The notes beneath the pieces were generated by a model. The model was not told the origin of the DNA, did no database searches, and saw only the letters and a program-made list of their open reading frames with translations. A stretch of 64,000 bases of DNA from Planctomycetota bacterium. GTDB taxonomy: Bacteria; Planctomycetota; UBA11346. Made by a program: the position numbers and the translations under genes. Location: assembly GCA_023150565.1 (NCBI GenBank), contig JAKLKR010000001.1:54804-118803 (forward strand), in the 5' to 3' direction. Shown one piece after another: positions 6,940-33,571 of the stretch. The first letter of the stretch is position 1. The number at the start of each line of letters is the position of its first letter.

Positions 6940-6941
6940 CC

Positions 6942-7151
6942 ATGGCGGCGCTCAAGCTCACCATGGGCGAGCGCGAGCAGCTTTCGGACTGCCGGCTGCT
7001 CTTCGCCGCCGCCGAACACGACATCCAGGTGGTGGTGCGCGGCCAGAGCCCGGATTGTGGCGAAGCCCTGGAGCATGCCTTGGAACAGGCTGAACAGGCC
7101 CTGGCGGGGTTGCGTCGGGTGCGTGCCGCGGTTGCTGCACGCCGCAACTGA
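6942..7151 (+). CDS. Small hypothetical protein downstream of rph
   Basis: 69-aa ORF starting 2 nt after the rph stop; no family recognised. Confidence 0.5.
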   Translation: MAALKLTMGEREQLSDCRLLFAAAEHDIQVVVRGQSPDCGEALEHALEQAEQALAGLRRVRAAVAARRN

Positions 7152-7324
7152 ACGGCGGTCGGGGGTATTGCCCCTCAACGTTCGCGGTCCATCCAGGTAC
7201 AATCATCGGGCCTCGATGCTCCGCCGTCCGCTCGTGGGACGGCGCTATGCAACCGGTGCCATCTCGCCTTGATCGTCCTTTTTAGACCTTAGTCTCCGTT
7301 TCCCCTCGTTTGGGGCCGGAATTC

Positions 7325-11498: not shown

Positions 11499-11499
11499 C

Positions 11500-12339
11500 A
11501 TGACCCACCAGTCCCACCTCCGTTTCAAGGAATGGTGCAAGCACGCCCTGCTGTGCTGCGTGCTGTTCTTCGCCTTCGTGCCGTTCTTCCTGATGCTGAT
11601 GATCAGCCTCAAGACCAACGACCAGTACACCACCAACCCCTGGTGGTTCGATGCGCCCTCGCAATGGTGCTGGGCCAACTGGACCAAGGGCTGGAACACC
11701 GTCGGCCACTACATCACCAATTCGATCGTGGTGGCGGTGGGCTCGGTGCTGCTGTGCCTGACCATCAGCATCCCCACCAGCTATGTCATCGCCCGCTACC
11801 GCTTCCCGGGGCGCGAACTGGTCTACTACGCGCTGATGGCCACCATGTTCCTGCCCGGCGGTGCCGCCGCGCTGGTGACCACCTTCAAGCTGATCAGCTC
11901 GATGGGCCTGGTGAACAACCTCGCCGCGCTGGTGCTGCTCTCGGGCATCGGCGGCCAGGTGAGCTGCGTGTTCATCCTGCGCCAGTTCATCGAGGAGATC
12001 CCCAAGGAGCTGTTCGAATCGGCCTCGATCGACGGCGCCGGCCATCTGCGCCAGATGTGGTCGATCATGCTGCCGCTGTCCGGGCCGGTGATCGGCACCC
12101 TGGCGATCATGAACTTCCTCGGCGCCTGGAACGACCTGATCATGCCGCTGATCCTCCTGCGCGACGACCAGATGCTCACCATCCCGGTCGGCCTGATGCG
12201 CCTCGACGGCGAGTACGTCAAGATGTGGGGCGAGCTGATGGCCGGCTATTCGATCGCCGCCATCCCCCTGGTCATCCTCTTCCTGTTCACCATTCGTCTC
12301 TTCGTCCGCGGCCTCACCGCGGGCGCGGTCAAGGGCTGA
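11500..12339 (+). CDS. Sugar ABC transporter permease, MalG/UgpE type
   Basis: EAA loop LFESASIDGAGHLRQMWSIMLPLSGPVIGTLAIMNFLGAWNDLIMPLIL; C-terminal FVRGLTAGAVKG. Confidence 0.92.
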   Translation: MTHQSHLRFKEWCKHALLCCVLFFAFVPFFLMLMISLKTNDQYTTNPWWFDAPSQWCWANWTKGWNTVGHYITNSIVVAVGSVLLCLTISIPTSYVIARYRFPGRELVYYALMATMFLPGGAAALVTTFKLISSMGLVNNLAALVLLSGIGGQVSCVFILRQFIEEIPKELFESASIDGAGHLRQMWSIMLPLSGPVIGTLAIMNFLGAWNDLIMPLILLRDDQMLTIPVGLMRLDGEYVKMWGELMAGYSIAAIPLVILFLFTIRLFVRGLTAGAVKG

Positions 12340-15763: not shown

Positions 15764-15798
15764 GGGGTCGCGCCATCGGCGCGGCCCCTGTCCTTTTT
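15764..15798 (+). terminator. Terminator after fusA
   Basis: GGGGTCGCGCC-atc-GGCGCGGCCCC then TGTCCTTTTT; sits between convergent genes. Confidence 0.7.
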
Positions 15799-16775
15799 CA
15801 GCCGCCGCCCATCGCCTCGTCGGCCATCGCCATCGCACCGCCCATCGCCTGGCTCCACATCATCAGCACGGTGCAGGCGGCGGTGATCATGGCGATCGCG
15901 TAGACGATCCCGGTGGCGATCTTGGCGGTCCAGCGCAGGCGCGAGGCGAAGCGCTCCTCGGCCAGGGTGGCGACCTGGGCGAGGGCGCGGTCGAGGCGTC
16001 CGCCGGCTTCGCCGGTCTGGACCAACGCCAGGAGGTCGCCGCCGATCCCGCCGTGGGCGAGGCCCTCGGCGACGCTGCCCAGGCGCCGTTCCTCGATGCT
16101 CACCCCGGCCTCCGCCAGGCGGGCGCCCATCGCCTGGTTGCCGCAGGCGCCGGCGGCGAGCGCGAACGCCGCCTGGACGCGCATGCCGGCCGAGAACGCC
16201 GCCTCCAGCACCGCGGCGGTATTCGCGGTCAGCATCGGCATGGCCAGGAACGTGAACGGCCGGCGCAGCATCAGCCGGCCGAACAGGCCGCTGCGTCCGG
16301 TGGCCCAGCCGGCTGCCGCCAGTGCGGCGATGATGCCCCACAGGCAGGCCGGTCCGGCCAGCAGCCAGAGGGGGTCGCTGCGTCCGAGCACCGCCCCTGG
16401 CACCGCCGGGGCGATCAGCGCCGCATGCAGCAGCAGGGCCGGGTAGATCAGGCGCCCTACCGCTTCATCGCGGGTGCGGGCCAGGCGTTCGCAGATGCCG
16501 GCGATGCGGCGGCAGCAGTCCGGCAGGCGGCCGCTCTCCTCGCCGGCGCGCACCAGCGCCACCACCAGCGGGGCTTCGCCCGAGGCCTCCAGGACCGTCC
16601 ACAGATGGGTGCCGGCTTCGCAGGATGCCGACCAGGAGGCGCTGGTCGTGGTCATCGCTCCGCCGGCGGTGGCTCCGGCCAGCACCAGCGAGCGTCCGAT
16701 CGGCAGGCCCGCATCGAGGAGGCCGGCGAGCTGGCCATGGAACAGCGCCGTGCGCCGCCAGCCGGCCAGGGTCAT
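15798..16775 (-). CDS. Type II secretion/type IV pilus inner-membrane protein, GspF/PilC family
   Basis: Two GspF-like halves, e.g. LAGLLDAGLPIGRSLVLAG...ALVRAGEESGRLPD and LALVQTGEAGGRLDRALAQVATLAEERFASRL; C-terminal TM. Confidence 0.8.
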   Translation of the reverse strand: MTLAGWRRTALFHGQLAGLLDAGLPIGRSLVLAGATAGGAMTTTSASWSASCEAGTHLWTVLEASGEAPLVVALVRAGEESGRLPDCCRRIAGICERLARTRDEAVGRLIYPALLLHAALIAPAVPGAVLGRSDPLWLLAGPACLWGIIAALAAAGWATGRSGLFGRLMLRRPFTFLAMPMLTANTAAVLEAAFSAGMRVQAAFALAAGACGNQAMGARLAEAGVSIEERRLGSVAEGLAHGGIGGDLLALVQTGEAGGRLDRALAQVATLAEERFASRLRWTAKIATGIVYAIAMITAACTVLMMWSQAMGGAMAMADEAMGGG

Positions 16776-17239
16776 GGCGGGGGGGCGGTCAGGGCGGCGG
16801 CGACCGCGGGCGGCACCAGCGCCTCGATGCCCAGGCCGGCGGCATGGACCTGGCGCACGAAGCTGGAACTGAGGTGCGCGAGCGCCCCCGGGGCGAGCAG
16901 CAGGATGGTGTCGAGGCCGAGCTGGCGGTGGTGCTCGGCCATCGCCCGCTCGTGGTCGAGGTCGGCGGCCGAGCGCACTCCGCGCAGCAGGGCATCGAGA
17001 TGCCGCTCGCGGGCGAAATGCAGGGTCGCCCCCTGGTAGGTGGCGACCTCGACCCGGGCGAGGTGGGCGCAGCAGGCGCGCAGCAATGAGACCCGGTGCT
17101 CGACCGGCAGCCATCCGCGCTTGTCCGGATGCACGGCCACCGCCACCACAAGCCGGCCGCCCAGGGCCGCCCCGCGGGTGATCAGGTCGAGATGCCCGAG
17201 GTGGGGCGGATCGAAGGACCCGGGAAACAGCAGGTTCAT
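16772..17239 (-). CDS. coaD: Phosphopantetheine adenylyltransferase (CoaD-like)
   Basis: MNLLFPGSFDPPHLGHLDLITRGAALGGRLVVAVAVHPDKRGWLPVEHRVSLL...HLSSSFVRQV. Confidence 0.82.
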   Translation of the reverse strand: MNLLFPGSFDPPHLGHLDLITRGAALGGRLVVAVAVHPDKRGWLPVEHRVSLLRACCAHLARVEVATYQGATLHFARERHLDALLRGVRSAADLDHERAMAEHHRQLGLDTILLLAPGALAHLSSSFVRQVHAAGLGIEALVPPAVAAALTAPPP

Positions 17240-18579: not shown

Positions 18580-19269
18580 ATGACCACCGGTGCAATCCGT
18601 GCCTGCCTGTGCCTCTGCCTGTGCGCCTTCGGGTTGGCGCTGTCCGCCCAGGATGGCGCGGTGGCGGATAAGCCGCCGGCCGAGGTCGCGGCCCTGGCGG
18701 AGCGCCACCAGCGCTCGCGCACCCTGCGCGGCTCATTCTCCTGGCTGGTGCGCCCGATCCTGGGGCCGGTCGACCCGGCCAGGCGGGCGCGCAGCGGCGA
18801 TTTCGCCTTCGCGGTGCCGGCCAGCTACAACATCGTCGTGCGCGACGGGGCCGATGGGCCGGTCGACCGCTGGTGTTCCGACGGCAAGGCCCGTTGGGAG
18901 GTCTCCCGTCTCAGCCCGGGTGACCCCGCCGATGTGCGGGGGCCGCTGGCGGTCGATGGCGGGGATGCCGACTACCGCCGGGTGATCGCCTGCCTGCGCC
19001 TGGATCTTGACCAGTTGGTCAGGGACCACATTCCCACCTGGCGTGGCCAGGAACGGGTGCTGGAACTGCGCCCGAGGGAGAAGGATGCGGGTGCGCGCGG
19101 CCCCCAGGTTGCCGCCATCGCCATCCAACTGGGCCCAGAAGGGGATCCTCAGCGGGTTGATATAGACCATACCGATGGCAATCGCTGGGCGGTGGAGGTG
19201 ACGCGCCTGGAGCGCGATGTCGCGCTGCCGCCGGAGCTGTTCTCCCCCCCGCTCGCCCAGCCGCGCTGA
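18580..19269 (+). CDS. Secreted hypothetical protein, possibly LolA-like outer-membrane carrier fold
   Basis: Signal peptide; GSFSWLVRPILGPVDPARRARSGDFAFAVPASYNIVVRDGADGPVDRWCSDGKARWEV resembles LolA-type layout. Confidence 0.45.
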   Translation: MTTGAIRACLCLCLCAFGLALSAQDGAVADKPPAEVAALAERHQRSRTLRGSFSWLVRPILGPVDPARRARSGDFAFAVPASYNIVVRDGADGPVDRWCSDGKARWEVSRLSPGDPADVRGPLAVDGGDADYRRVIACLRLDLDQLVRDHIPTWRGQERVLELRPREKDAGARGPQVAAIAIQLGPEGDPQRVDIDHTDGNRWAVEVTRLERDVALPPELFSPPLAQPR

Positions 19270-19409: not shown

Positions 19410-21245
19410 ATGCATAGATATCCGGTCGCCTGGGGCTTGGACATCGGTCACGCCAGCATCAAGGCGGTCAAGGTCCAACGGCTGAAGGACCAGGTCTCGG
19501 TCCTCGCCTACACCATCGAGCCGATCGCGATTCCCGAAGGCGGGGATCGTGACGAAGCCCTGATCACCGCCCTGCAGCAGATGGCGGCGCGCGAGGAATT
19601 CGGCGACACCCCGGTGGTGGCGGCGCTGTCCGGCCGCCAGGTGTGGACCAAGACGGTCAACATCCCGCTGGTGGGCACCAAGAACGTCGAGCGCATGGTC
19701 GAACTCGAGGCGCGCCAGCAGGTGCCCGGCGACTTCGACGATGTCGAGTGGGGCTACCACACCACCCCGGCGGCCGACGGCTCCAGCCTCGACGTGGCGT
19801 TGTTCGCGGTGAAGCGCGAGATCGCGCAGGACCTGGTGGCCAAGACCAAGCGCACCGGCCTCAATCTGGTGGGCATCTCGGTGTCCAGCCTGGGTCTGTA
19901 CAACTTCGTGCGCTACGACCAGGAGTTCCCCGAGGAGGAGACGGTCATCATCCTCGATGTCGGGGCCGAGAACACCGACCTGGTGCTCTACCAGGGCGAA
20001 GGCCTGTGGATGCGCACCCTGGCGGTGTCCGGCAACGACATCACCAAGGCGTTCATGAAGAAGTTCCGCGTCTCCTTCGAGGAGGCGGAACAGCTCAAGC
20101 GCCAGGCGGTCGACAGCCGCCAGGCCGACAAGATCATCAAGGTGATCGAGGCCAGCCTGGGCGAGCTGGCGAGCGAGGTGCAGCGCAGCCTGGGCTTCTA
20201 CAAGCAGCAGAACAAGGAGGCCAAGCTCGAGAACCTGGTGATCAGCGGCAGCACCTTCCGCCTGCCCGGCCTGCCCGAATACATGGCCGAGCGCCTGCGC
20301 TACCAGGTCAACATCCTCGAAGATCTCGACAAGATCAAGGTTGCCAACGGACTCGAGCGCGACCACTTCATGCACGACCTGCAGTCGCTGGGCGTGGCCA
20401 TGGGTCTGGCCCTGCAGGGCACCGGGGCGGCGCGCGCCAACGTCGACCTGATGCCGGCCGATCTCCAGCTTGAGCGTGTGCTGCGCAGCAAGCGCTGGGC
20501 GGGGGTGCTGGTGGCGGGCGCCCTGGCGGCGACCCTGGTGGTCGACCTCTCGGTCGCCGGTTCGGTGTTCGAGCAGAACAACGCCCTGGTCGAGCGCGCC
20601 AAGAAGAACTTCAAGGAGTTCACCGGGCGCCAGAGCGAGGCCCGTACCGCCCTCGATGAGGTCCCCAAGAAGGCGCAGGAGCTCAAGGCTTTCGACCCCT
20701 ACGGCGCCCACCAGGGGGTGATCTACGGCATCGCCGCCTCGGTGGTGGGCGTGCTGCAGGATGTGGTCAAGGAGCGCGGCAAGATCGAGGTCGACCTCAA
20801 GGACCGGGATCGCACCAACGCGCCGATGGTGCAGGCCGCCTATCTGCGCTCCCTGACCATTCCCGAGGTGCCATGGTTCGAGGACAGCGGCCCCTTCCGC
20901 CCCCTGGCCAAGAAGCGCGACCTCATCCTTGAGGTCAGCATCCCGCGCGACGCCAAGCCCGACGAGATCAGCCGCCAGGTGATCGATCGCCTCAAGGCGC
21001 TGCCGGTACCGGGCATGGTGGCTGATCCCGCCGCCCGGCTGTTCAGCGACGTGCAGGCGCGCGGCACCCGGCTCGAGGACGAGACCTACTGGGTGATCGA
21101 CCGCAACCATGTCGATCCAGAGACCAAGAACCCCAAGCCGCTGGAGGAGGAACGCAAGGTGAAGGCCTCGGTGTTCACCTTCGTCTGCACCCTCAACGTC
21201 CCGGCCTCGGCATCCGCTCCGGCGGCCCCGGAGGTGAAGCCATGA
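19410..21245 (+). CDS. PilM-like (FtsA/actin-fold) protein with C-terminal TM/PilN-like extension
   Basis: WGLDIGHASIKAVKVQRLKDQVSVLAYTIEPI; TVIILDVGAENTDLVLYQG; LVISGSTFRLPGLPEYMAERL; TM near RSKRWAGVLVAGALAATLVVDLSVAG then coiled coil. Confidence 0.8.
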   Translation: MHRYPVAWGLDIGHASIKAVKVQRLKDQVSVLAYTIEPIAIPEGGDRDEALITALQQMAAREEFGDTPVVAALSGRQVWTKTVNIPLVGTKNVERMVELEARQQVPGDFDDVEWGYHTTPAADGSSLDVALFAVKREIAQDLVAKTKRTGLNLVGISVSSLGLYNFVRYDQEFPEEETVIILDVGAENTDLVLYQGEGLWMRTLAVSGNDITKAFMKKFRVSFEEAEQLKRQAVDSRQADKIIKVIEASLGELASEVQRSLGFYKQQNKEAKLENLVISGSTFRLPGLPEYMAERLRYQVNILEDLDKIKVANGLERDHFMHDLQSLGVAMGLALQGTGAARANVDLMPADLQLERVLRSKRWAGVLVAGALAATLVVDLSVAGSVFEQNNALVERAKKNFKEFTGRQSEARTALDEVPKKAQELKAFDPYGAHQGVIYGIAASVVGVLQDVVKERGKIEVDLKDRDRTNAPMVQAAYLRSLTIPEVPWFEDSGPFRPLAKKRDLILEVSIPRDAKPDEISRQVIDRLKALPVPGMVADPAARLFSDVQARGTRLEDETYWVIDRNHVDPETKNPKPLEEERKVKASVFTFVCTLNVPASASAPAAPEVKP

Positions 21246-22525
21246 GCAAGCTCAAGCCCTACCTGTTCTGGGTGGTGATAGGCGCGGTGGTGCTGGTCGA
21301 GGTGGTGGTATTCGTGCTTGCCCTGCCGGATGTCGACGTGATTGGCAGCCTCAACGGCGCCCGCGAGACGAAGAACACGCTCGACAAGGACTACAAGCAG
21401 CTCGAAGAGTTGGCGGTGCGCGCCAAAGAGGGCATCCCCCCCGGCCAGTTCGATGCCGAGCAGCCGGCCGAGATCGACAACCTGGTGAAGAAGTACCTCA
21501 TCACCCCGGCTTGGAAGCCGGTGCTGGAACGCCAGGTCGAGGATTACCGCAAGACCTCGGCCGCCATTCAGCGCTACCTGGCCCAGCGCAGCAAGCCGTT
21601 GCTGCGCCACGTCGCCGACACCGAGGACAAGCTCGAATGGTACACCGCCTACCAGAAGGAGACGGTCGAGTTGCTGCGCACCCTGCACGCCGAGCGTCGC
21701 CTGCAGCTGCCCGAGGTCCCGGTCGCCGAAGGAGTGGCCGCCGAACCTGATTTCACTGATGATGCCCGCATGCGTGAAGTGATCGGGCTCTATACCAAGC
21801 CCGGCGACTTTCCGGATCCGAAGGAGCATCCGCTGATCACTGGCCGCCTGCGCGCGGTGGAGCAGATCGCGGCCGCCCTGCGCCGGGCCAAGGCCCAGGT
21901 GGTGGTCAACCCGGTGGCGGCTGTCGGCGGCGAGGGTCTGCGTCCGGCGCGGGTCAGCGCCCTGCGCTGGGAGGGCATGGAGGCGGCCAAGGCCGCCGCC
22001 GCCGCCCTTGCGGCCAAGGCGGCCGCGGCCGCAGCTGCGGCTGCGGGCCCTGCCGGTGGCCCGGGCATGATGATCCCCGGCATGAACTTTCCCGGCATGG
22101 AGGCCCCCATGGGTCCCACTGCCGCGGTGACGGTCGCCAAGCCGGTCAGCGATCGTGGCGATGTTGAGATGCCCGGCCAGCTGGCGGGGCTGGCTACCGG
22201 TTGGCGTGCGGTGATCGACCTGGTCGGTCCGTTGCCGTCGGTGATGGCGGCAGAGGCTGCGCTGGAGCATGGCGACCCCCAGGGTCCGGTGCTGGTGGTG
22301 ACCGCCTTCGAGATCAAGCGCAAGGAATCCTTCCGCCAGGCTGAGCGCAAGGATGTTGCCGCTGAGGATATCCGCGCCCAGGTTGCGGTGCTGGTGCTCG
22401 ACTTCACCAAGGCCGGCGAACTGGCGGTGGGGGCTGAGAAGAAGGCGCAGGAGGATGCCGCTGCAGCCGCCGCTGCCGCGGCAGCCGAGCGTCCGAAATC
22501 GAAATCCAAGAAGGCGAAGGATTGA
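21242..22525 (+). CDS. Membrane scaffold-like protein (PilO-like position) with Ala-rich linker
   Basis: ATGA overlap with PilM-like gene; single N-terminal TM (YLFWVVIGAVVLVEVVVFVLAL); Ala/Lys and GPGMMIPGMNFPGM low-complexity linker. Confidence 0.5.
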   Translation: MSKLKPYLFWVVIGAVVLVEVVVFVLALPDVDVIGSLNGARETKNTLDKDYKQLEELAVRAKEGIPPGQFDAEQPAEIDNLVKKYLITPAWKPVLERQVEDYRKTSAAIQRYLAQRSKPLLRHVADTEDKLEWYTAYQKETVELLRTLHAERRLQLPEVPVAEGVAAEPDFTDDARMREVIGLYTKPGDFPDPKEHPLITGRLRAVEQIAAALRRAKAQVVVNPVAAVGGEGLRPARVSALRWEGMEAAKAAAAALAAKAAAAAAAAAGPAGGPGMMIPGMNFPGMEAPMGPTAAVTVAKPVSDRGDVEMPGQLAGLATGWRAVIDLVGPLPSVMAAEAALEHGDPQGPVLVVTAFEIKRKESFRQAERKDVAAEDIRAQVAVLVLDFTKAGELAVGAEKKAQEDAAAAAAAAAAERPKSKSKKAKD

Positions 22526-22534
22526 GGATCAGCC

Positions 22535-24475
22535 ATGGCCATGAAACCCCTGTTGATTGCTCACGGCGAGAAGGCCCTGGTGGTGGTGGTGGTGGGCCTG
22601 TGCGCCCTCGAGGTGTGGACCACCCTCGATGATCCCAGCATCCGTCCCGACAAGGCCAGCCCGGCCGAGATCGAACTCAAGGTCGCGCTCATCGACAAGG
22701 CTCTGCGTGGTGGCGGTGCCCCCCAGCTCAAGCCGGTTCCGGCCTATCTCGAGAACCTCCAGCAGCGTTTCCGCGCCGAATTCGCCCAGCCGGGGCAGAT
22801 GCCCTGGCTGACCGCGATGCCCGACCGCGGACCGAGCGACACCATCCTGCTTTACGTCTACGAACTGGCGGCTCCGACCATCGAGGCGCGCGATCTGTCC
22901 GGTAGCGTCGAGTTGGCCATCTCGCTGCCGCAAGCGGTGCGGCAGGGTGATCGCCGGGTGTCGGATGCGGCGCAGGTGGTGTGGAGCACCCCCGCTGGGG
23001 TGAAGAATTCGGCGCGCATGGTCGGGGTGCTGGTCGAGACCCGGCCCGGCGCCGACAAGCCCTGGGCCCCGGTGAAGACCAAGGATGCGCCCAACGGCAT
23101 CCTGGCCCTGCCTGGCGCCGGGGTGCCCCCACGCGCAGCTGTGCCCGAACCGCGGCCGGCAGCGCCGGGCCCCGCCCTTGGCGCCATGCCTGGTGCCGCC
23201 GCCGGCCCTGGCCCCGGCATGGACATGATGGGGGGGCCTCCGGCTCCGGTCGCGGTGGCGGAACCGGCACGCGGTGCCCTGTCGCTGCGCATCGACGGAC
23301 TGGAATCCTGGACCCTGCACGAGTTCCGCGCCACCCTGGTGGCGGTGGCCACCGGCGCCACCTTGGGCAAGGAGGCGAGCAAGAGCGGATACGGCGTGCT
23401 GGTCACCGCGGGACGGGTGGTGCCCGAAAACGCCTCGATCGACGAGTTGCCCTGGGACCAGTGGCGCAAGGGGCTGGAAGGCAATGTGCCCGAGGTGGTT
23501 GGCCGCTTCCTGACCGGCCGCGCTGGGCCGCTGCCGGCGGGAATGGAATTAACCCCCGGCGAGCAGGCCTACCTTGGCCAGCCGATGGCCAAGGGGGTTC
23601 CGGTCCAGGTCACCTCCGACGTGCGGTTTGCACTCGAGCGCATCGTCAATGACCCCAACGGGGTGGCCCAGGCCCAGGTGCTGGTGACCAAGCAGTTCTC
23701 GATCCCGGGCGGCGGGGTGGTGTGGCTCAAGGAGCCACGTGGCTTCAAGGTCGCCGTGGGCAGCCGCCTGGGCGGTCCGGTGCAGGTTCCGGATCCCCGC
23801 CCTGGCCGCAATGGCATCGTCAATGCCGACCTCTCGACCCCGTTCGTGGTCGCGGAGATCCGCCGTGGGGTCGAGCGGGTCTATTACCATGAACTGCGCG
23901 AGGTGCCGCGTCAGGGTGCCAAGGGCCGTGACCTCCAGGTGGTGCCCAAGAAGGGTCTGACCGACGTGGTGGTCCTGCGCAACGAGCGCAGCGGCTCGAC
24001 CTTCGAGCTGGTGCGCTTGGGCAAGGTGCCAGCGCCGGCAAAGGCGGGCACGGTCACCTATCCCACCCTCAAGGGCGAGATCGACGAGCGCGGCGAATTC
24101 GTCGCCGACCCGCTCGCCTTCCAGGTGCCGCCGTTGGAGCAACCGGCCCCGGTGCGCTGGGAGGCCGACAAGGGCCCGCTCGCCAAGCTGCGCGAGGAGC
24201 ATCCCGAGGATCGGGATCTCTATACCACCGACACCGCCTACTTCGCGTTTGCGGACGGGCGGCTGGTGTGGTGGGAGAAGCTCAACAAGGTGGTGCGGCA
24301 GTGGCCGGAGCCGGCCCCTGGTGCGGTCACGGCTCCTGTTTCTGGGCCCGAGACCGCTCCACCGGTGGAGCCGCATGCCCCGCTCCCTCCCCATCCGGGT
24401 GCCAAGCCGCCCAGGGGTGCGCCGGTCGAGCCGATGCCGCCCGGTCCCGGCCCGGTCGGGCCCAAGACGCGCTGA
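22535..24475 (+). CDS. Hypothetical periplasmic/membrane protein of the pilus-like cluster
   Basis: 646 aa; N-terminal hydrophobic segment ALVVVVVGLCALEVW; Pro/Ala/Met-rich linker and Pro-rich C-terminus. Confidence 0.5.
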   Translation: MAMKPLLIAHGEKALVVVVVGLCALEVWTTLDDPSIRPDKASPAEIELKVALIDKALRGGGAPQLKPVPAYLENLQQRFRAEFAQPGQMPWLTAMPDRGPSDTILLYVYELAAPTIEARDLSGSVELAISLPQAVRQGDRRVSDAAQVVWSTPAGVKNSARMVGVLVETRPGADKPWAPVKTKDAPNGILALPGAGVPPRAAVPEPRPAAPGPALGAMPGAAAGPGPGMDMMGGPPAPVAVAEPARGALSLRIDGLESWTLHEFRATLVAVATGATLGKEASKSGYGVLVTAGRVVPENASIDELPWDQWRKGLEGNVPEVVGRFLTGRAGPLPAGMELTPGEQAYLGQPMAKGVPVQVTSDVRFALERIVNDPNGVAQAQVLVTKQFSIPGGGVVWLKEPRGFKVAVGSRLGGPVQVPDPRPGRNGIVNADLSTPFVVAEIRRGVERVYYHELREVPRQGAKGRDLQVVPKKGLTDVVVLRNERSGSTFELVRLGKVPAPAKAGTVTYPTLKGEIDERGEFVADPLAFQVPPLEQPAPVRWEADKGPLAKLREEHPEDRDLYTTDTAYFAFADGRLVWWEKLNKVVRQWPEPAPGAVTAPVSGPETAPPVEPHAPLPPHPGAKPPRGAPVEPMPPGPGPVGPKTR

Positions 24476-24611
24476 CTGCACCACACACGCGCATACCGTG
24501 AGTGACACGAACTGCGGCGCCGACCCGGCGCCGGTTTCTTCCGGGGGTTCCACCATACGGTGCGACCGTTCCCGGGCGGGCGGCCCTGCCCGCGACCACC
24601 AAGATCAAGGC

Positions 24612-24668
24612 GGGACGGCATTTCCCGCATCGTCCGGCATCCTTGCGATGCCGGACCGCAGCCGTCCC
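24612..24668 (+). promoter_or_regulatory. Nested hairpin in the leader of secretin 1
   Basis: Inner perfect 10-bp stem GTCCGGCATC-cttgc-GATGCCGGAC inside outer GGGACGGC...GCCGTCCC; 24 nt before the ATG. Confidence 0.45.
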
Positions 24669-24691
24669 CTGCCACCGCGAGGAGCTGAACG

Positions 24692-27151
24692 ATGACCCGT
24701 CGGAACCTGCCCCTGACCCCGCTGATGTTGGCGTTGGCAGTGGCCCTCCCGCTCGATGTCTCCGCTGCCGAGCCGGGTCCTGGGCCCGACGCCGGTCAGG
24801 CGACGGGTACCCAGATGGCCGCCGCCGATGCCGCCTACGGGCAGGCGGTCGCCGCCTTCCGGGACGCGCGTTTCGCCGAGGCCTCGACCAAGGTGGATGA
24901 GGCCCTGCGCCTCATGCCCAGCCACCCTCAGGCGCTCGCCCTGCGCAAGGATGTGCAGGCGGTGCTCGGCCAGCGCGACGACCGGCTGGAAATGGCCGCC
25001 ACCTGGTTCAAGAGCATCCAGGACGTGCAGATGCAGGAGACCGCCATCCGCATCCGCGCCCTGGTCGAGGGCGGCGACCGCAAGTTCGCCGCCGGCGACT
25101 ATGCCGGTGCCGAGTTGGACTACGACCGTGCCGAGGTCAGCCTGCGTGCGGTGCCCTACCGCTTCGACTGGGGCGGCCTGCCGGCGCAGATCGGCGGCAA
25201 GCGCGCCGAGGCGCGGGCGGCGGCGCGCAAGCAGTCGATCGACCGCGACGCCCAGGCGCGCGACCTCGCCCAGGCCCGCGCCAAGGAGCAGAACGAACTG
25301 CAGGAGCAGGCGCTCAAGGCCAAGGTCGACGAACTGCTGCGCCGCGCCAAGGAGGCCTACGGGCGCAAGGACTACCGCCGCGCCGAGGTCGATTCCTGGA
25401 ACGCCTACGAACTCGACCGCCGCCGCGAGGACGCCCGCGACCTCTATCTCAAATCCCGCCGCGAAGGCCATGTGTTCTTCGACCAGCGCTACGAGGACGA
25501 GCGCCTTGAGCGCCTGGCCCGGCTGAACGAAGAGATCTACCGCTCGATGATCCCGCAGAGCGAGGTGCTGGTCTATCCTGAGGACTGGCAGCGCCGTTCG
25601 CTGCGCAAGCCGCGCGAGATCGGTTCCAAGAAGGAGGAGCCGTGGCTGGCCCAGCTGCGCGACAAGCTCGAGCAGCGGGTGACCTTCGAGTTCACCGAGG
25701 CGCCCTTCGAGGACGTGATCGCCTTCCTGCGTTCGGTCACCCAGGTCAACATCGTGGTCGCGCCGAGCGTGATCGCCAGGGCCGGCGGCGGCACCGTCAC
25801 CCTGCGCGTCAAGGACATGCGCTTCGGTGACGCCCTCAAGTGGGTGCTGCAGATCACCAGCCTGCGCATGGCGCTGCAGGACCAGGCGATCTTCATCAGC
25901 GACCAGCCGATCGCCGGCGCGGTGGTGCTGCGCATGTACGACGTCGCCGACATCATCAGCGTGCGCAAGAACTTCCCCGGCCGCGAGCTGGCGTTCTCGT
26001 CGGCCGGTGGCGGCGGGGCCTCGGGCAGCCTGTTCACCGCTCCGGCCGCCACCGATGACGCCAACAAGGCGATCTCGGTCGACGACCTGGTCGAACTGAT
26101 CAAGAAGAACGTCGACGCCAAGAGCTGGGAGGGCAACACCAAGGTCGGCATCGAGCAGCGCGCCGGCTCGACCCTGTTCATCACCCACACCCCCGAGATC
26201 CAGGACCAGATCAACGAACTGCTGACCAACCTGCGCAACCAGGATGCGTTGCAGGTCAAGATCGACATGCGCCTGCTCAATGTGCGCAAGAACTACTTCG
26301 AGGAGATCGGCTTCGACTGGATCTCGCAGAGCGGCGGCCGGCCGGTGCTGTTCGCCATCCCGCCGGGCGGGTCGGGCTACATGCGCGAGAACTCCAATTC
26401 GCAGATCCTCGGCAACGTCACCAACACCCAGGCCCTGCCCGCCAATGCGGTCAACTTCTCCCAGGCCCAGGGCGGCACCACCCGCGGCCTGCTGCTGCAG
26501 GGGGTCAACAACTACGGCAACTTCCTCTCGTCCGACCAGATCAGCGTGATCTTCAGCGCGGTCGAGAACGAGAGCGACCTCCAGCAGGTGTCGCGCCCGC
26601 AGATCACCTGCTTCAATGGCCAGCAGGCCAACGCCTCCTTCATCACCCAGTTCGCCTACATCAAGAGCTACGAGGTGGTGAGCCAGAACCTCGACCCCAA
26701 GATGGAGGTGCTGGTGTTCGGCGACCTCATCGACATCAAGCCGGTGGTGAGTTCCGACCGCAAGTACGTGATGATGGAGGTCAAGCCGACCTCGGTCGAC
26801 CTGGTGGGGGTGTTCACCGAGCAGATCGTCGCCCCGCGCGTGGTCGGCACCGGTGGCACCACCGGTGGTGTGGTACTGCCGCCGATCTTCACCTATCCGC
26901 TCGAACTGCCCAACTTCGAGGTCAAGGGCCTGCGCTCGACCGTGATGCTGCCGGACAAGGGCAGCCTGCTGCTGGGCGGATTCCAGTCGAGCGTGCGCCA
27001 GCGCACCCACACCGGCATCCCCTTCCTGAGCCACATCCCGTTCCTCGGCCGCCTGTTCAGCCGCAACGGCAGCTACGACGACAACCGCAAGCTCTACTAC
27101 CTGCTCGGCGCCGAGATCATCCATCTCAAAGAGAAAGAAGATCTGCAGTGA
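24692..27151 (+). CDS. Secretin 1 (GspD/PilQ family) with N-terminal TPR/coiled-coil region
   Basis: FEFTEAPFEDVIAFLRSVTQVNIVVAPSVIARAGGGTVTLRVKDMRFGDALKWVLQIT; MLPDKGSLLLGGFQSSVRQRTHTGIPFLSHIPFLGRLFSRNG. Confidence 0.88.
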   Translation: MTRRNLPLTPLMLALAVALPLDVSAAEPGPGPDAGQATGTQMAAADAAYGQAVAAFRDARFAEASTKVDEALRLMPSHPQALALRKDVQAVLGQRDDRLEMAATWFKSIQDVQMQETAIRIRALVEGGDRKFAAGDYAGAELDYDRAEVSLRAVPYRFDWGGLPAQIGGKRAEARAAARKQSIDRDAQARDLAQARAKEQNELQEQALKAKVDELLRRAKEAYGRKDYRRAEVDSWNAYELDRRREDARDLYLKSRREGHVFFDQRYEDERLERLARLNEEIYRSMIPQSEVLVYPEDWQRRSLRKPREIGSKKEEPWLAQLRDKLEQRVTFEFTEAPFEDVIAFLRSVTQVNIVVAPSVIARAGGGTVTLRVKDMRFGDALKWVLQITSLRMALQDQAIFISDQPIAGAVVLRMYDVADIISVRKNFPGRELAFSSAGGGGASGSLFTAPAATDDANKAISVDDLVELIKKNVDAKSWEGNTKVGIEQRAGSTLFITHTPEIQDQINELLTNLRNQDALQVKIDMRLLNVRKNYFEEIGFDWISQSGGRPVLFAIPPGGSGYMRENSNSQILGNVTNTQALPANAVNFSQAQGGTTRGLLLQGVNNYGNFLSSDQISVIFSAVENESDLQQVSRPQITCFNGQQANASFITQFAYIKSYEVVSQNLDPKMEVLVFGDLIDIKPVVSSDRKYVMMEVKPTSVDLVGVFTEQIVAPRVVGTGGTTGGVVLPPIFTYPLELPNFEVKGLRSTVMLPDKGSLLLGGFQSSVRQRTHTGIPFLSHIPFLGRLFSRNGSYDDNRKLYYLLGAEIIHLKEKEDLQ

Positions 27152-29385
27152 CCGGTGGGCACCCGCCCTGCTCGTGCGGAGCGGGACCGCGGCCGGTGGC
27201 CGCGGTCGCTCGGGTGCCGTCGCGTCTGATCGCCTTCCCGGTCGCAGCCATGCTCGCCGCCGGGTGCGCGGCTGCAGAGCCGGCCGCTGGTGCCGACCGG
27301 GTGGCGGTCGCCCAGGCCGAACAAGCCGCCGACCGGGCCGCCGCCGCCGGCCGCCCGGCAGACGGCATCGCCGGGCTCGAGGCCGCGCTGGTGGTGGCGC
27401 GGGACCAGGGTTACGAGGCCGCGGTCATCGCCCGCATCCAGGCCCGCCTGACCGAATTGCGCCGGCAGTCGGCTGCCGCTGCGGCCGCTGCCGATGACCG
27501 GGACCGGCACGAATCCCTGGCCACCGCCATCGGCACCGCCGACGAGACCGCCGGGCGTGGGCGCGGGGTGCGTGGCGAACGCCTGGCACGGGTGCGCGAG
27601 GCCCAGGCCCGCGGCCATCTTGAAGCCGCGATGGGCGACTGCCGTCGTCTGGCCGACGATCATCCCGGGGACGAGGAGATCGAGCGGCTCTATGCCCGCA
27701 TCCTCGCCGACCTGCATGACCGCCGCCGCCTCGATCATCGCGCGGCACTCGATGAACTGCGCCAGGAGATCGCGCTGCGCACCGAGATGGACATGCTGCC
27801 GATGGGCAGCGATGGCTGGCCGCGCTTCCCCTCCGATTGGCAGGCACGCTCGGCCCGCCGCCAGGAGGCGCGCTCGTCCGAGGTCCGCCCGGCCTGGCGC
27901 GAAGTGCTGGACGACCGTCTGGCCGAACGGGTGTCGCTGTCGGTCGACAACGTCAGCGGGGTCGAGGTCCTGCAGAACCTGGCCAGGATGCACCGGTTCA
28001 GCCTGGTGATCGATCCGGCGGTGGTGGCGGGCAAGGACGTGGCGGTGACCCTGCGGGTGCCGGCCATGCGCCTCGACCACCTGCTGTCGTGGGTGACCCG
28101 CTCGATGGGCACCAGCTGGTCGTTGTCCAAGGGTGCGGTGTGGATCGGTGATGGCTCCGAGCAGGAACTGGTGCTGGGCGTGCATGATGTGGGTGCGCTG
28201 CTGTCCCAGGCGGTCGACATGCCCGAACGCCAAGTGTCCCTGACCACCACCGGTGCCAGCGGCGCCAGCCTGTTCACCACCCAGCAGGATACCGCCGGCA
28301 AGGCGATGACCGCCGAGGAGGTCGCCGATCTGATCAAGGCGGGGGTGGGGGCGGCGCTGTGGGATCGCCCGGGCTACGGCATCACCATCCGTGGCCATAC
28401 CCTGTTGGTGGCGGCGCCGGCCGAGATCCACAAACTCATCGGCGAGTTCATCCGCGCCCAGGAGCGCCAGGCTAATCTACAAGTGCGCATCGAGTCGCGC
28501 TGGCTCGAGGTGCAGGACCGCTTCATGGAGGAGATCGGCGTCGATTGGACCACCAACCGTTCCCAGACCCCGTTCCAGGGCGGCTGGGCCGGTCATGGCT
28601 TCTACCGCCAGAGCCCCAACGCCCAGACCTCCGCCGATGTCACCAACCTGCTGCCGGCCACCGCCATGGCGATCAATCCCGCCATCGGCGGTACCGGCCT
28701 GACCCTGGGCACGGTGCTGCTCGACCAGATCCAGGCTTCCGCGGTGCTGGTGGCGGTCGAGCGTTCGAGCAAGGCGCGGGTGGTCGAAGGTTCCTCGGTG
28801 GTCACCCTCAATGGCATCCGCGCCAACATCTTCACCGGCGACCAGGTGGCCTACATCTCGACCTACGAGGTGGTGAGCGGCAACCTCGACCCCAAGATCC
28901 AGACCATCACCACCGGGCTCAACCTGGATGTGCGGCCGATCATCTCCTCCGACCGCCGCTATGTGACCCTGGAGTTCCGCCCCTCGGTATCGACCCTCAG
29001 GTTCTTCACCGAGACGGTCCAGGCGGCGCGCTCGCTCCCTTCCGGTCGGATCAATGTCTTTCTCGGCGATTTCATCACTCCCATCGACCCGATCAGACCG
29101 CCCCCTGGACTCTTGTACCAGGCGACCTATCCGATCGAACTGCCGCATGTGCAACTGCGCGAGGCGAGCACCACCGCCACCCTGCCCGACCGCGGCTCGC
29201 TGCTGGCCGGTGGCTTCAATTCCTCGCTCGATCAGGCCACCCGCGCCCAGGTGCCTTACCTGGGCAGCATCCCTTGGCTCGGCCGTCTGTTCGGACGGCG
29301 GGGCCGCTATTCGCAGCACGACCGCCTGTTCCTGCTCACGTCCGCCACCATCATCGCCTACGACGAACTGGAGACGAAACTGTGA
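27148..29385 (+). CDS. Secretin 2 (GspD/PilQ family), candidate lipoprotein
   Basis: VLQNLARMHRFSLVIDPAVVAGKDVAVTLRVPAMRLDHLLSWVTRSMG; LPDRGSLLAGGFNSSLDQATRAQVPYLGSIPWLGRLFGRRG; AMLAAGC lipobox-like; ATGA overlap. Confidence 0.85.
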   Translation: MTGGHPPCSCGAGPRPVAAVARVPSRLIAFPVAAMLAAGCAAAEPAAGADRVAVAQAEQAADRAAAAGRPADGIAGLEAALVVARDQGYEAAVIARIQARLTELRRQSAAAAAAADDRDRHESLATAIGTADETAGRGRGVRGERLARVREAQARGHLEAAMGDCRRLADDHPGDEEIERLYARILADLHDRRRLDHRAALDELRQEIALRTEMDMLPMGSDGWPRFPSDWQARSARRQEARSSEVRPAWREVLDDRLAERVSLSVDNVSGVEVLQNLARMHRFSLVIDPAVVAGKDVAVTLRVPAMRLDHLLSWVTRSMGTSWSLSKGAVWIGDGSEQELVLGVHDVGALLSQAVDMPERQVSLTTTGASGASLFTTQQDTAGKAMTAEEVADLIKAGVGAALWDRPGYGITIRGHTLLVAAPAEIHKLIGEFIRAQERQANLQVRIESRWLEVQDRFMEEIGVDWTTNRSQTPFQGGWAGHGFYRQSPNAQTSADVTNLLPATAMAINPAIGGTGLTLGTVLLDQIQASAVLVAVERSSKARVVEGSSVVTLNGIRANIFTGDQVAYISTYEVVSGNLDPKIQTITTGLNLDVRPIISSDRRYVTLEFRPSVSTLRFFTETVQAARSLPSGRINVFLGDFITPIDPIRPPPGLLYQATYPIELPHVQLREASTTATLPDRGSLLAGGFNSSLDQATRAQVPYLGSIPWLGRLFGRRGRYSQHDRLFLLTSATIIAYDELETKL

Positions 29386-32006
29386 CCTCCCCGACGACCC
29401 TCCGGCACCCCATCCACCTGCGCGCTCTCACCTTGGGCATGCTTGCGGTCTGCGGCCTGGCCGGCGTCGCCCGTGCCGAGGAGGCCGGCGGTGCTCCCCA
29501 GGACGGAACCCAGCCAGCGGGCGCGGCCACCGAGGCCCAGACCGCCCCTGCGGCGGTAGCGCCGGCCCAGGAAGGCCCCGGCGCCCAGGCCGCGGCCGAG
29601 GAACGCCGGCTTGCTGCCGGCGCCGCCCTCTACCAGGAGGGCGTGCGCGCACGCGACCAGGGGCGCATCGACGAGGCGCTGCGTGCGCTCACCGCCGCGG
29701 TCGAACGCGACTCCGCCAATGCCCTCTACCGCAAGACCCTCGATGGGGTGCGGGCGATGGCCGGCGCCGATGGCGGCGCGCGCGGGGCGGCGGTCGACCG
29801 GGTCACCGACGAACTGATGGTGCGCCAGCAGCAGCTGCTGATCGAGGCCACCGCCAAGCTCGAAGACGCCGAGAAGCTGATCGCCTCCGGCCGCTACGGC
29901 GATGCCGAGCGGGAACTGCAGATGGCACGCGCCCGCCTCGAAGGCCTGCCCTTCGCGGATGGCCGGCGCGAGCAGGGCCTGCGTCGGGCCGACAGCCTGC
30001 TGGCCGAGGCCGCCGCCCGTCGCGCGGCGCAGGATCGCAGCGAGTCCGCCGCCCGTGCCCAGGCCGCCCTCGACCAGCAGGCCGCCCTGCGCGATATGAG
30101 CCTCAAGATCGAACGCGACCGCATCGAGGCGATGATCTCCCGCGCCCAGCGCGCGCGCGATCGCCGCGACTTCGACGAGGCGATCCTGCTCTGCGAGCAG
30201 GTGCTCAAGCTCAACCGCGCCGAGGACCGCGCCGCCAGCCTGCTGGCCAAGTGCCGCCGCGAGCGCCACGCCTACCTGCGCCAGATCACCGCCGACCGCT
30301 GGGATGAGGAGCATCAGCTGCTCTCGGAGCAGATCCGCACCGCCCTGCTGCCCCAGCTGGAGATCATCAAGTACTCCAGCGACTGGCCCGAGATCGACTT
30401 CCGCCGCACCGCGCCCTCGCGTGCGGGCGCCAAGGACGCCTCCTCGGAGGCCTGGCGCAAGGACATCGACAACAAGCTGGAACAGGAGGTCTCGCTCGAC
30501 TTCCAGGACCAGGACCTGGCCGAAGTGGTGGGTTTCCTGCAACAGGTGACCAACGCCAACATCGTGCTCGATCCCCAGGTGATCGCCGCCAGCCCGCCGC
30601 CGATCACCCTGCGCGTCGACAAGATGAAGCTGCGCTACGTGCTCGACTTCATCATGAAGATCACCAGCCTGACCTACGCGCTCAAGGACGAGGCGATCTT
30701 CATCAGCAGCGCGGCCGGCGTGCGCGGCGACGCGTTCATGAAGATCTACGACATCCGCGACCTCACCCACGCGCCCAAGAGCTTCCCCGGCCCGGAGATG
30801 GACATCCCCCAGCCGGGCGGCACCGGCGCCACCTTGCTGCCGGCGATCGAGGCGGAGCAGCAGCCCGAGGCCAACGAGTTCATCGACATCATCAAGAAGG
30901 TGGTCGCCCCCGACACCTGGCTGCCCGAGAACGGCACCGACATCGGCGAGTTCAACGGCAACATGGTGGTGACCCAGACCGCCGACGTGCACCGCCTGGT
31001 CGAGGAGATGCTGCGCGCCCTGCGCAACCAGAAGGGCACCCAGATCCACGTGAAGTGCAAGTTCCTCAATATCGAGAACGCCGCGGTCGAGGAGATCGGG
31101 GTCAACTGGCGCAACTTCACCGGGCCCATCGGTGGCAGCATCACCGGTGGCCAGCAGCTCGGTCCCGGCACCGCCAACAATGGCGGCGGCGTACTGCTGC
31201 CGGGCACGGTCAACCCGGTGGGCGCCTACTGGGCCGATCCCGCCAACCAGATCGCCGGCGCCGGCACCCTCAACAATCCCTTGCCCGCCTTCACCACCGC
31301 GCGCGGCGTCACCACCGGGGTCAACGAAGGCCTGGTGCTGAACACCCAGATGTGGCAGGTGGCCAACAACCTGTATGCCTCGGCGGTGATCAACGCGGTC
31401 GAGAAGGAACGCAAGGGCAACATCATCCTGGAACCCGATCTGACCATGTTCAACGGTCAGCAGGCGCACCTGGTCCAGCTCAACCAGCAGTCCTACATCT
31501 CGGACTACGACGTGGTCCAGTCGCAGTACCAGCCGGTGATCGCCACCCTTGCCTACGGCACCGTGCTCGACGTGATGGCGATCGCCTCGGCCGACAAGAA
31601 GTACATCACCCTCACCCTGCGCCCCACCAGCGCGCGGGTCGACAGCTGGCGCCGCTTCGGCCCACCGGTCGGCGCCGGCACCTTCCCGGGCGGTAACGTC
31701 AATCAGGCTGGTTCTGCCATCGGTTCCGGCGGCGCCGGCTTCGGCCTCAACCCCATCCTGGTGCCGGCGATCAAGTATGAAGCCGTACGCACCTCGGTCA
31801 CCATCCCCGATGGCGGCTCGCTGGTGATCGGCGGCATGACCAATGGCGACAGCGAGCGCACCCATGCCGGGGTGCCCTTCCTCAGCCACATCCCCTTCCT
31901 CGGCCGCCTGTTCTCCAGCAACGGCCGCAAGGAGACCCAGCTCCAGACCATGATCGTGGTCCAGGCCGACGTGGTGCTGTTCGAGGAGATCGAGAAGAAC
32001 CTCTGA
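29382..32006 (+). CDS. Secretin 3 (GspD/PilQ family)
   Basis: GTGA overlap start; DFQDQDLAEVVGFLQQVTNANIVLDPQVIAASPPPITLRVDKMKLRYVLDFIMKIT; IPDGGSLVIGGMTNGDSERTHAGVPFLSHIPFLGRLFSSNG. Confidence 0.87.
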   Translation: MTSPTTLRHPIHLRALTLGMLAVCGLAGVARAEEAGGAPQDGTQPAGAATEAQTAPAAVAPAQEGPGAQAAAEERRLAAGAALYQEGVRARDQGRIDEALRALTAAVERDSANALYRKTLDGVRAMAGADGGARGAAVDRVTDELMVRQQQLLIEATAKLEDAEKLIASGRYGDAERELQMARARLEGLPFADGRREQGLRRADSLLAEAAARRAAQDRSESAARAQAALDQQAALRDMSLKIERDRIEAMISRAQRARDRRDFDEAILLCEQVLKLNRAEDRAASLLAKCRRERHAYLRQITADRWDEEHQLLSEQIRTALLPQLEIIKYSSDWPEIDFRRTAPSRAGAKDASSEAWRKDIDNKLEQEVSLDFQDQDLAEVVGFLQQVTNANIVLDPQVIAASPPPITLRVDKMKLRYVLDFIMKITSLTYALKDEAIFISSAAGVRGDAFMKIYDIRDLTHAPKSFPGPEMDIPQPGGTGATLLPAIEAEQQPEANEFIDIIKKVVAPDTWLPENGTDIGEFNGNMVVTQTADVHRLVEEMLRALRNQKGTQIHVKCKFLNIENAAVEEIGVNWRNFTGPIGGSITGGQQLGPGTANNGGGVLLPGTVNPVGAYWADPANQIAGAGTLNNPLPAFTTARGVTTGVNEGLVLNTQMWQVANNLYASAVINAVEKERKGNIILEPDLTMFNGQQAHLVQLNQQSYISDYDVVQSQYQPVIATLAYGTVLDVMAIASADKKYITLTLRPTSARVDSWRRFGPPVGAGTFPGGNVNQAGSAIGSGGAGFGLNPILVPAIKYEAVRTSVTIPDGGSLVIGGMTNGDSERTHAGVPFLSHIPFLGRLFSSNGRKETQLQTMIVVQADVVLFEEIEKNL

Positions 32007-32086
32007 GGTTCGGCTGATCTCCGAGAGTCGATCGCGGGCGCGCCTTGCCAGGTGCGCCCGCAATCGTTATGCCCTGGCCCATCATG

Positions 32087-33571
32087 CGTCCGATCCCCTC
32101 CTCGCCCCGCATCCTGTTCTGGGGATGCTGGATCGCCCTGGTCACCACCTCGTTCGGCTTCCTGCTGCGCGTCCTGCTGATGGACGACTGGGCCCGGCAG
32201 TTCCATCTCACCGAGACGCAGAAGGGCGAGTTGTTCGGGGTCGGGTTGTGGCCCTTCGCCATCTCGATCGTGGTGTTCAGCCTGGTGATCGACCGCATCG
32301 GCTACAAGACCGCGATGCTGTTCGGCTTCGCCTGCCATCTCGCCTCGCTGCTCATGACCGTGAACGCCACCAGCTACGAGGGCCTCTACTGGGCCAACTT
32401 CGTGGTCGCGCTCGGCAACGGCACCGTCGAGGCGTACATCAACCCGGTGGTGGCGACGCAGTTCCGCGAGCAGAAGACGGTGTGGCTGAACCGCCTGCAT
32501 GCCGGCTGGCCGGCCGGCTTCGTGATCGCCGGGCTGCTCGCCCTGCTGCTGGGCTCGGACTGGAGCTGGCAGTCGCGCATGTGGCTGCTGCTGGCGCCGG
32601 CGCTGGCCTATGCCGCCATCCTGCTGTTCCAGGAGTTCCCGGTGAACGAGCGCGTCGCCGCCGGGGTGCCCTACCGCGCCATGCTCGCCGAGGTGGGCGC
32701 GGTGGGCGCGTTCCTCATCACCTGGCTGGTGGCGGCCGAGCTGCTGCGCTCGCTCGCCCTGGGTGCCAACCCGCTCCTGCACGGTGCGGTGGCGGCGGCG
32801 GTGGTGGCGGCGGGGGTGTTCGCGGCGGTGCGCAGCCTCGGCCGGCCGTTCTTCATCCTCATGCTGCTGGTGATGCTGCCGCTGGCGACCACCGAGCTGG
32901 GGGTCGACTCCTGGGTCTCCGACCTGCTCGGGCCGGTGCTGGGCGGCAAGGGCATCTGGGTGCTGCTCTACACCGCCAGCCTGATGATGGTGCTGCGCTT
33001 CTGCGCCGGCGCGGTGGTGCACCGGCTGTCGCCGCTCGGGCTGCTGGCGCTGTGCTCGGCGGTGGCGGCGGCCGGCCTGGTGGCGCTGTCCTCGGCGGCG
33101 GGCGCGGTGGCGGTGTTCGCCGCCGCCACCCTCTATGCCGCCGGCAAGGCCTTCTTCTGGCCGACCATGCTCGGGGTGGTGGCCGAGCAGTGTCCGCGCG
33201 GTGGGGCGCTGACCCTCAATGCCACTGGCGGGGTGGGCATGCTCGGGGTCGGCGTGCTGGGGGCGATGCTGCTGGGCAACATCCAGGACCGCGGGCTCGA
33301 CCGTGCCCTCGCCGAGCGTGCGCCCCAGGTCCACCAGGCGGTGATGGTCGAGCAGCAGGGCCTGCTCGGGACCTATCGCGCGGTCGATGACCGGCGCCTG
33401 GCCGCCGCGCCGCCGGAAGCGGCCCAGGAGGTCGAGCGCACCCGCGCCGAAGTGAAGCGGCAGGCCTTGTTCCAGGTCGCGGCGCTGCCGCTGCTGATGC
33501 TGGCGGTCTACCTCGCCCTGGCCTGGTGGTTCCGCCGGCGCGGCGGCTACCGGCCGGTGGCGGTGGGCTGA
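32087..33571 (+). CDS. Major facilitator superfamily transporter
   Basis: About 12 hydrophobic helices; VINRIGY-like loop VIDRIGYKTAMLFGFACHLAS; start 32045/32069/32087 uncertain. Confidence 0.8.
   Translation, partial: RPIPSSPRILFWGCWIALVTTSFGFLLRVLLMDDWARQFHLTETQKGELFGVGLWPFAISIVVFSLVIDRIGYKTAMLFGFACHLASLLMTVNATSYEGLYWANFVVALGNGTVEAYINPVVATQFREQKTVWLNRLHAGWPAGFVIAGLLALLLGSDWSWQSRMWLLLAPALAYAAILLFQEFPVNERVAAGVPYRAMLAEVGAVGAFLITWLVAAELLRSLALGANPLLHGAVAAAVVAAGVFAAVRSLGRPFFILMLLVMLPLATTELGVDSWVSDLLGPVLGGKGIWVLLYTASLMMVLRFCAGAVVHRLSPLGLLALCSAVAAAGLVALSSAAGAVAVFAAATLYAAGKAFFWPTMLGVVAEQCPRGGALTLNATGGVGMLGVGVLGAMLLGNIQDRGLDRALAERAPQVHQAVMVEQQGLLGTYRAVDDRRLAAAPPEAAQEVERTRAEVKRQALFQVAALPLLMLAVYLALAWWFRRRGGYRPVAVG

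What the first reader, a model, noticed from the sequence alone, without database searches (positions are those of the whole stretch)
19410..32006. Pilus/T2SS-like locus with PilM-like protein and three tandem, translationally coupled secretins
Sequence: six same-strand ORFs, PilM-like, two single-TM linker-rich proteins, then three GspD/PilQ-family proteins in a row. Each secretin has its own N-domain block and terminal GSLL.GG..S/LGRLF signature. Secretin 1-2 and 2-3 overlap by 4 nt (ATGA, GTGA). Knowledge: canonical T4P and T2SS loci carry one secretin gene, and secretins are homo-oligomeric rings. The layout recalls the Akkermansia Amuc_1098-1102 pilus-like cluster of PVC bacteria. Inference: a PVC-specific envelope machine with either a hetero-oligomeric secretin or three alternative channels. 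No PilB/PilT-type ATPase is adjacent.
Basis: partly seen in the sequence, partly recalled or inferred. Interest (0 to 1): 0.85.

Follow-up and report, generated by a model that had tools for sequence, protein, structure and literature searches.

The report
Three-secretin variant of planctomycete envelope machine
A planctomycete genome carries, in one operon with a pilus-type inner-membrane platform, three different outer-membrane channel (secretin) genes in a row; the trio is conserved across its whole class and is the extreme form of a phylum-wide locus that joins several secretins to a proton-driven ExbB/ExbD motor instead of a pilus ATPase, which suggests an undescribed way of building and powering such a channel.

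Summary
Six + strand genes (19410-32006) encode a PilM/PilN-type protein, two single-TM proteins and three full secretins. It is not an assembly quirk: 23 of 24 genomes of the class (13 genera) carry all three. Each of S1, S2 and S3 is its own fully supported clade, and the S2-S3 junction is a GTGA overlap in 18 of 18 loci. S2, the most divergent, still folds as a secretin.

The wider context changes the reading. This secretin type is in 118 of 120 Planctomycetota genomes, usually twice. The usual locus is PilM-B-C-secretinA-TPR-TPR-ExbB-ExbD-ExbD-(sulfatase)-secretinB (motor present in 31 of 40 loci read, at least 23 families). The window's class has a tandem trio instead. ExbB-ExbD-ExbD follows the trio in at least four of its genomes; in the window's own genome it sits on another contig. 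No PilB-type ATPase is linked, although PilT-PilB-PilC exists elsewhere.

Best reading: a proton-motive-force-linked, multi-secretin envelope machine related to the Akkermansia MUL2 locus, probably for binding or importing macromolecules. Whether S1-S3 form one mixed channel or three alternative ones is undecided. Novelty: new variant of a known kind; no description found in the papers searched.

The parts
19410..21245 (+). PilM-like protein with a C-terminal extension (PilM-PilN/GspL-like layout), 611 aa
   Evidence: PilM_2 E 1.2e-38 over 9-337; NCBIfam Amuc_1101_fam 215 bits, cut-off 650; profile matches solved PilM 3jc8, 2ych and 5eou
21242..22525 (+). B: protein with one N-terminal hydrophobic segment, 427 aa; position suggests PilO/GspM (weak)
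   Evidence: orthologs in the complete loci of the class; one ortholog matches GspM_XpsM at E 2.8e-4; overlaps PilM by ATGA
22535..24475 (+). C: protein with one N-terminal helix and a beta-rich remainder, 646 aa, fold not assigned
   Evidence: conserved in the class; AlphaFold pLDDT 76; no PDB fold match at E<1e-3
24692..27151 (+). secretin S1, 819 aa: helical/TPR block, N0/N1, secretin barrel
   Evidence: PF00263 1.6e-19; own clade 100/99 in tree
27148..29385 (+). secretin S2, 745 aa, fastest evolving of the three
   Evidence: PF00263 4.2e-24; own clade 100/99; AlphaFold model best matches BfpB, PilQ, InvG, GspD, E down to 6.9e-15
29382..32006 (+). secretin S3, 874 aa, branches outside S1+S2
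   Evidence: PF00263 1.6e-23; own clade 100/100; GTG start inside GTGA
27148..27151 (+). GTGA stop/start overlap S1-S2
   Evidence: GTGA at 13 of 18 class loci
29382..29385 (+). GTGA stop/start overlap S2-S3
   Evidence: GTGA at 18 of 18 class loci

Best explanation
This is the class-specific form of a Planctomycetota-wide trans-envelope machine of type IV pilus/MUL2 ancestry. The PilM/PilN-type protein with B and C forms an inner-membrane platform. Two or more non-identical secretins (here S1, S2, S3) together form its outer-membrane part. An ExbB-ExbD-ExbD proton channel, rather than a PilB/GspE ATPase, probably supplies energy. The most likely job is to hold, open or move substrate through an outer-membrane channel for binding or importing large molecules such as polysaccharides, as for the related Akkermansia locus. 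Shown by sequence: identity of the secretins, conservation, ancient duplications, conserved gene coupling, linkage to ExbB-ExbD in most lineages. Inferred: that ExbB-ExbD drives this machine, that the secretins act in one machine, and the uptake function.
For: Three secretins. All three in 23 of 24 class genomes, 13 genera sampled; the exception G007 has its PilM-B-C on a 4.9 kb contig that ends after C. S1, S2, S3 each monophyletic, support 100, so two duplications predate the class and all copies were kept. GTGA coupling at S2-S3 18/18, S1-S2 13/18. In G015 the trio stays together although PilM-B-C is on another contig. Phylum: 118 of 120 genomes have this secretin type, mostly two; 31 of 40 further loci carry ExbB-ExbD behind the secretin, mostly with two TPR proteins between and a second secretin after. 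ExbB-ExbD-ExbD behind S3 in G005, G011, G012, G016. No PilB/GspE in these loci. Akkermansia PilQ is its most abundant OM protein (PMC4960237) and MUL genes incl. pili are needed for mucin accumulation (PMC12418764, PMC13174399).
Against: In the window's own genome the ExbB-ExbD cassette lies on a different contig (C512), so its link to this machine there is by analogy. The two TPR proteins of the usual locus were not found beside the trio in the class. The genome also encodes PilT-PilB-PilC (C552), which could drive the platform in trans. No biochemical or imaging data exist for this class that I could find; the records seen are metagenome bins. The 40 loci were chosen for visible pairs and long contigs, not at random.
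Confidence: 0.5

Rival explanations
1. Three alternative homo-oligomeric channels: S1, S2 and S3 each form their own ring and share one inner-membrane platform, used at different places, times or for different substrates.
For: From general knowledge, secretins of known structure are homo-oligomers (relatives listed). N-terminal blocks differ strongly between paralogs of one genome (17-23% identity) while barrels stay more alike (32-46%), as expected if each binds different partners. P. limnophila has two kinds of crateriform structure (PMC5394234).
Against: Strict retention, fixed order and GTGA coupling across the class suggest matched amounts rather than alternative use; only one PilM-B-C set per trio.
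Confidence: 0.3
2. An ordinary type IVa pilus whose PilQ gene was triplicated; PilB/PilT/PilC elsewhere in the genome drive it.
For: PilM-first operon order as in pilMNOPQ; a PilT-PilB-PilC cluster exists (C552); PilQ is among the best solved relatives of all three.
Against: No recognisable PilP, pilin or ATPase in the locus; phylum-wide linkage is to ExbB-ExbD, not PilB; a second PilM of a different lineage exists in most genomes of the class (C118 in this genome) and could serve the pilus.
Confidence: 0.17
3. Redundant or decaying tandem duplicates, or an assembly artefact.
For: S2 evolves faster than S1 and S3.
Against: Orthologous and full-length in most of 23 genomes from independent assemblies; secretin motifs kept in all three.
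Confidence: 0.03

Closest known systems
Akkermansia Amuc_1098-1102 / MUL2 locus (Verrucomicrobiota)
   Same: TPR-bearing secretin, PilM-like protein and uncharacterised proteins side by side; no ATPase named in the locus descriptions I read
   Different: One secretin described there, three here; below NCBIfam equivalog cut-offs; a pilin-like Amuc_1102 was not identified here; ExbB-ExbD linkage in Akkermansia not tested
Type IVa pilus pilMNOPQ operon
   Same: PilM-first order, single-TM proteins, PilQ-family secretin
   Different: Three PilQ-like genes, no recognisable PilP or pilins in the locus, ExbB-ExbD linkage in the phylum
Type II secretion system (GspL/GspM/GspD)
   Same: PilM-type protein with extension resembles GspL in layout; B weakly GspM-like; secretin
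   Different: No GspE/GspF in the operon; three secretins; other secretins with GspD-type N0/Secretin_N domains exist elsewhere in the genome
ExbB-ExbD/TolQ-TolR proton-motive-force motors
   Same: ExbB followed by two (here three) ExbD genes
   Different: Linked to secretins and PilM in this phylum rather than to TonB-dependent receptors or Pal

Membership tests
Secretin superfamily (PF00263) | C-terminal secretin barrel domain in each of the three ORFs | tested here: met
   full-length PF00263 matches; S2 fold matches secretin structures
Secretin superfamily (PF00263) | periplasmic N-domains | tested here: met
   N-domain matches to PilQ 4ar0 for S1 and S3; N0/N1-like elements in the S2 model with EscC/InvG/XcpQ N-domain matches
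Type IVa pilus | PilM homolog | tested here: met
   PilM_2 E 1.2e-38; PilM structures
Type IVa pilus | PilN/PilO/PilP | tested here: inconclusive
   PilM carries an extension in the PilN position; B weakly GspM-like in one ortholog; C matches nothing convincing
Type IVa pilus | PilB/PilT ATPase encoded with the system | tested here: not met
   none in the locus or in the related secretin loci, one PilT-like gene beyond the G005 locus apart; present elsewhere in the genome. Many true T4aP operons also keep pilB apart, so this alone does not exclude membership
Type IVa pilus | a single PilQ gene | tested here: not met
   three paralogous genes; oligomeric state not testable here
Akkermansia MUL2 locus | PilM-like MUL2B (Amuc_1101) and secretin (Amuc_1098) families | tested here: inconclusive
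   among the best NCBIfam hits but far below equivalog cut-offs
Akkermansia MUL2 locus | pilin-like MUL2A (Amuc_1102) | not tested
   no search for it was made
PMF-driven ExbB/ExbD system | ExbB and ExbD genes with the machine | tested here: inconclusive
   contiguous in four class genomes and 31 of 40 phylum loci; on another contig in this genome

The most novel reading that the evidence does not exclude
Planctomycetota build a core envelope machine, possibly the unidentified crateriform structure, in which two or three different secretins assemble into one hetero-oligomeric or stacked outer-membrane channel that is opened or driven by an ExbB-ExbD proton motor and used to import macromolecules.
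Probability: 0.25. Interest if true: 0.95.

Novelty: new variant of a known kind. Interest (0 to 1): 0.8.

Why it matters
Well-studied secretins are homo-oligomers served by cytoplasmic ATPase-driven machines (general knowledge). A near-universal planctomycete locus with two or three retained secretin paralogs and an ExbB-ExbD motor would be a new way to build and energise such a channel. It also gives concrete genes to test for two open planctomycete puzzles: what crateriform structures are made of, and how intact large molecules enter the periplasm (both stated as open in PMC5394234).

Tried and rejected
Assembly artefact or recent duplication: rejected by orthology in 23 genomes. S2 as a non-secretin ring protein: rejected by Pfam and fold match. 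A conserved downstream partner: the window's MFS gene (32045-33571) has no relative in the loci fetched by then, so it is local. The gene upstream (18580-19269), the GspF-like gene (15798-16847) and the other neighbours likewise had no phmmer match among those loci. Fold of protein C: no PDB match. B and C against NCBIfam and B against the PDB: nothing convincing. Lipobox as a shared feature: frequent in phylum secretins by a crude pattern (48 of 70) but rare in S1-S3, so not used. Davey 2023 (Akkermansia MUL genes) and Mahajan 2020 (planctomycete envelope), recalled from memory, are not in the library. Promoter/terminator scan: no more hits than shuffles.

Full report
Observation. The six ORFs are present as described on the + strand, 19410-32006. 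Pfam gives PilM_2 for the first and full-length Secretin domains for the last three. NCBIfam's nearest special families are Amuc_1101_fam for the PilM-like protein and Amuc_1098_fam among the hits of the secretins, far below their equivalog cut-offs.

Genome and relatives. The genome is a 6.05 Mb draft in 558 contigs with seven secretins, of which these are three. Named relatives found with the PilM alignment are nearly all Planctomycetota MAGs. Order and class searches return the same 24 genomes as the family search, so in the held set the class is one family of 13 genera. In 23 of 24 all three secretins are found; the exception, G007, is 77% complete and its PilM-B-C contig ends after C. The order PilM-B-C-S1-S2-S3 is kept where the contig is long enough, except in G015, where PilM-B-C lies on another contig but S1-S2-S3 stay together. 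The PilM ORF is split in two in G013 and the S1 frame is broken in G005, possibly sequencing errors. GTGA overlaps occur at S2-S3 in 18 of 18 loci and at S1-S2 in 13 of 18 (the window and one named-record locus included).

Three old paralogs. A maximum-likelihood tree of 88 secretin C-terminal regions places S1, S2 and S3 each as one clade with bootstrap 100; S3 branches outside S1+S2. S2 evolves fastest: mean ortholog identity in the helical N-terminal block is 0.30 against 0.53 for S1 and S3, and in the barrel 0.45 against 0.57 and 0.61; paralogs of one genome share 0.32-0.46 in the barrel and 0.17-0.23 in the N-terminal block. S2 is still a secretin: its AlphaFold model (pLDDT 70.5, 17 sequences) best matches BfpB, V. 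cholerae PilQ, InvG and GspD in the PDB. TM-scores are low because the model is one subunit with loosely placed domains, so the match shows domain identity, not ring geometry.

Wider locus. Neighbours of related single-secretin loci turned out to be TPR proteins and MotA/TolQ/ExbB and ExbD genes. A phylum search with a profile of secretins from outside the class found matches in 118 of 120 genomes, mostly two per genome. Of 40 further loci read, chosen for visible pairs or long contigs, 31 carry ExbB and ExbD downstream of the secretin, in at least 23 families by the handles. The usual order is PilM-B-C-secretinA-TPR(about 950-1340 aa)-TPR(about 340-470 aa)-ExbB-ExbD-ExbD, often a gene of about 550-650 aa (Sulfatase in the two tested), then secretinB. 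MotA/ExbB genes number 1-12 per genome, so finding one within 10 kb by chance should happen in roughly 1% of loci (my estimate); the observed linkage is far above that.

In the class of the window, ExbB-ExbD-ExbD follows S3 in G011, G012, G016 and G005, with a lysyl-tRNA-synthetase-type gene between where checked. In the window's genome that cassette (LysRS, ExbB, three ExbD) is on contig C512, and an MFS gene follows S3. No PilB/GspE-type ATPase was found in the secretin loci of this type; one PilT-like gene lies on the opposite strand beyond the ExbD genes in G005. PilT-PilB-PilC is elsewhere in the genome (C552).

Evolution of several secretins. A second, quicker tree of 108 sequences separates secretinA and secretinB into two main clades plus smaller A and B sets, keeps S1, S2, S3 as separate clades, and gives lineage-own pairs in f5, in f17 and in f47 together with one named lineage; the tandem pair of G129 is one A plus one B without the motor between them. 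Several independent duplications, or an old pair repeatedly homogenised by gene conversion, would both give this picture; I did not separate them.

Mechanism. Shown: identity, conservation, order, coupling and linkage. Inferred: that the secretins work in one machine and that ExbB-ExbD energises it. Function is inferred from relatives: in Akkermansia the Amuc_1098 secretin is the most abundant outer-membrane protein (PMC4960237), amuc_1099-1102 is called MUL2 (PMC13174399), and MUL genes are needed for mucin accumulation (PMC12418764). Planctomycetes take up dextran and have crateriform contacts between outer and inner membrane with pili-like fibres whose components are not identified (PMC5394234). 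Linking this locus to crateriform structures is my hypothesis.

Known or new. Searches of the held papers for multiple secretins, for secretin with ExbB and PilM, and for planctomycete secretins found no description of this locus. Most subscription papers are not held, so this is weak evidence of novelty.

Noticed in passing
window 15798-16847 (-): GspF/PilC-family gene (T2SSF E 1.9e-24) upstream of the locus, apart from any ATPase; similar short GspF-like ORFs appear in the T2SSF hit lists of several relatives.
   Followed up: partly
L152 (G000:C512) 6335-10841: LysRS-ExbB-ExbD-ExbD-ExbD cassette of this genome, next to another PilM-like ORF of 663 aa.
   Followed up: partly
G016:C91:22337-24670: A fourth, stand-alone S2-like secretin in one genome.
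   Followed up: no
G016:C24:136996-137466, G005:C223:4835-5308, G031:C21:1042-1530 and others: Several class genomes carry a separate stretch similar only to the N0/N1 region of S1, about 160 aa.
   Followed up: no
L049 (G000:C122) 7059-11649: A different secretin (866 aa) followed by a PilM-like protein (661 aa), also seen in relatives L177 and L178.
   Followed up: no
L042:9049-10878, L047:13121-14749: Sulfatase-family gene between ExbD and the second secretin in two phylum loci, possibly a hint at sulfated polysaccharides.
   Followed up: partly
phylum loci L181-L220: A crude lipobox pattern fits 48 of 70 secretins, so many may be lipoprotein secretins; rare in S1-S3.
   Followed up: partly
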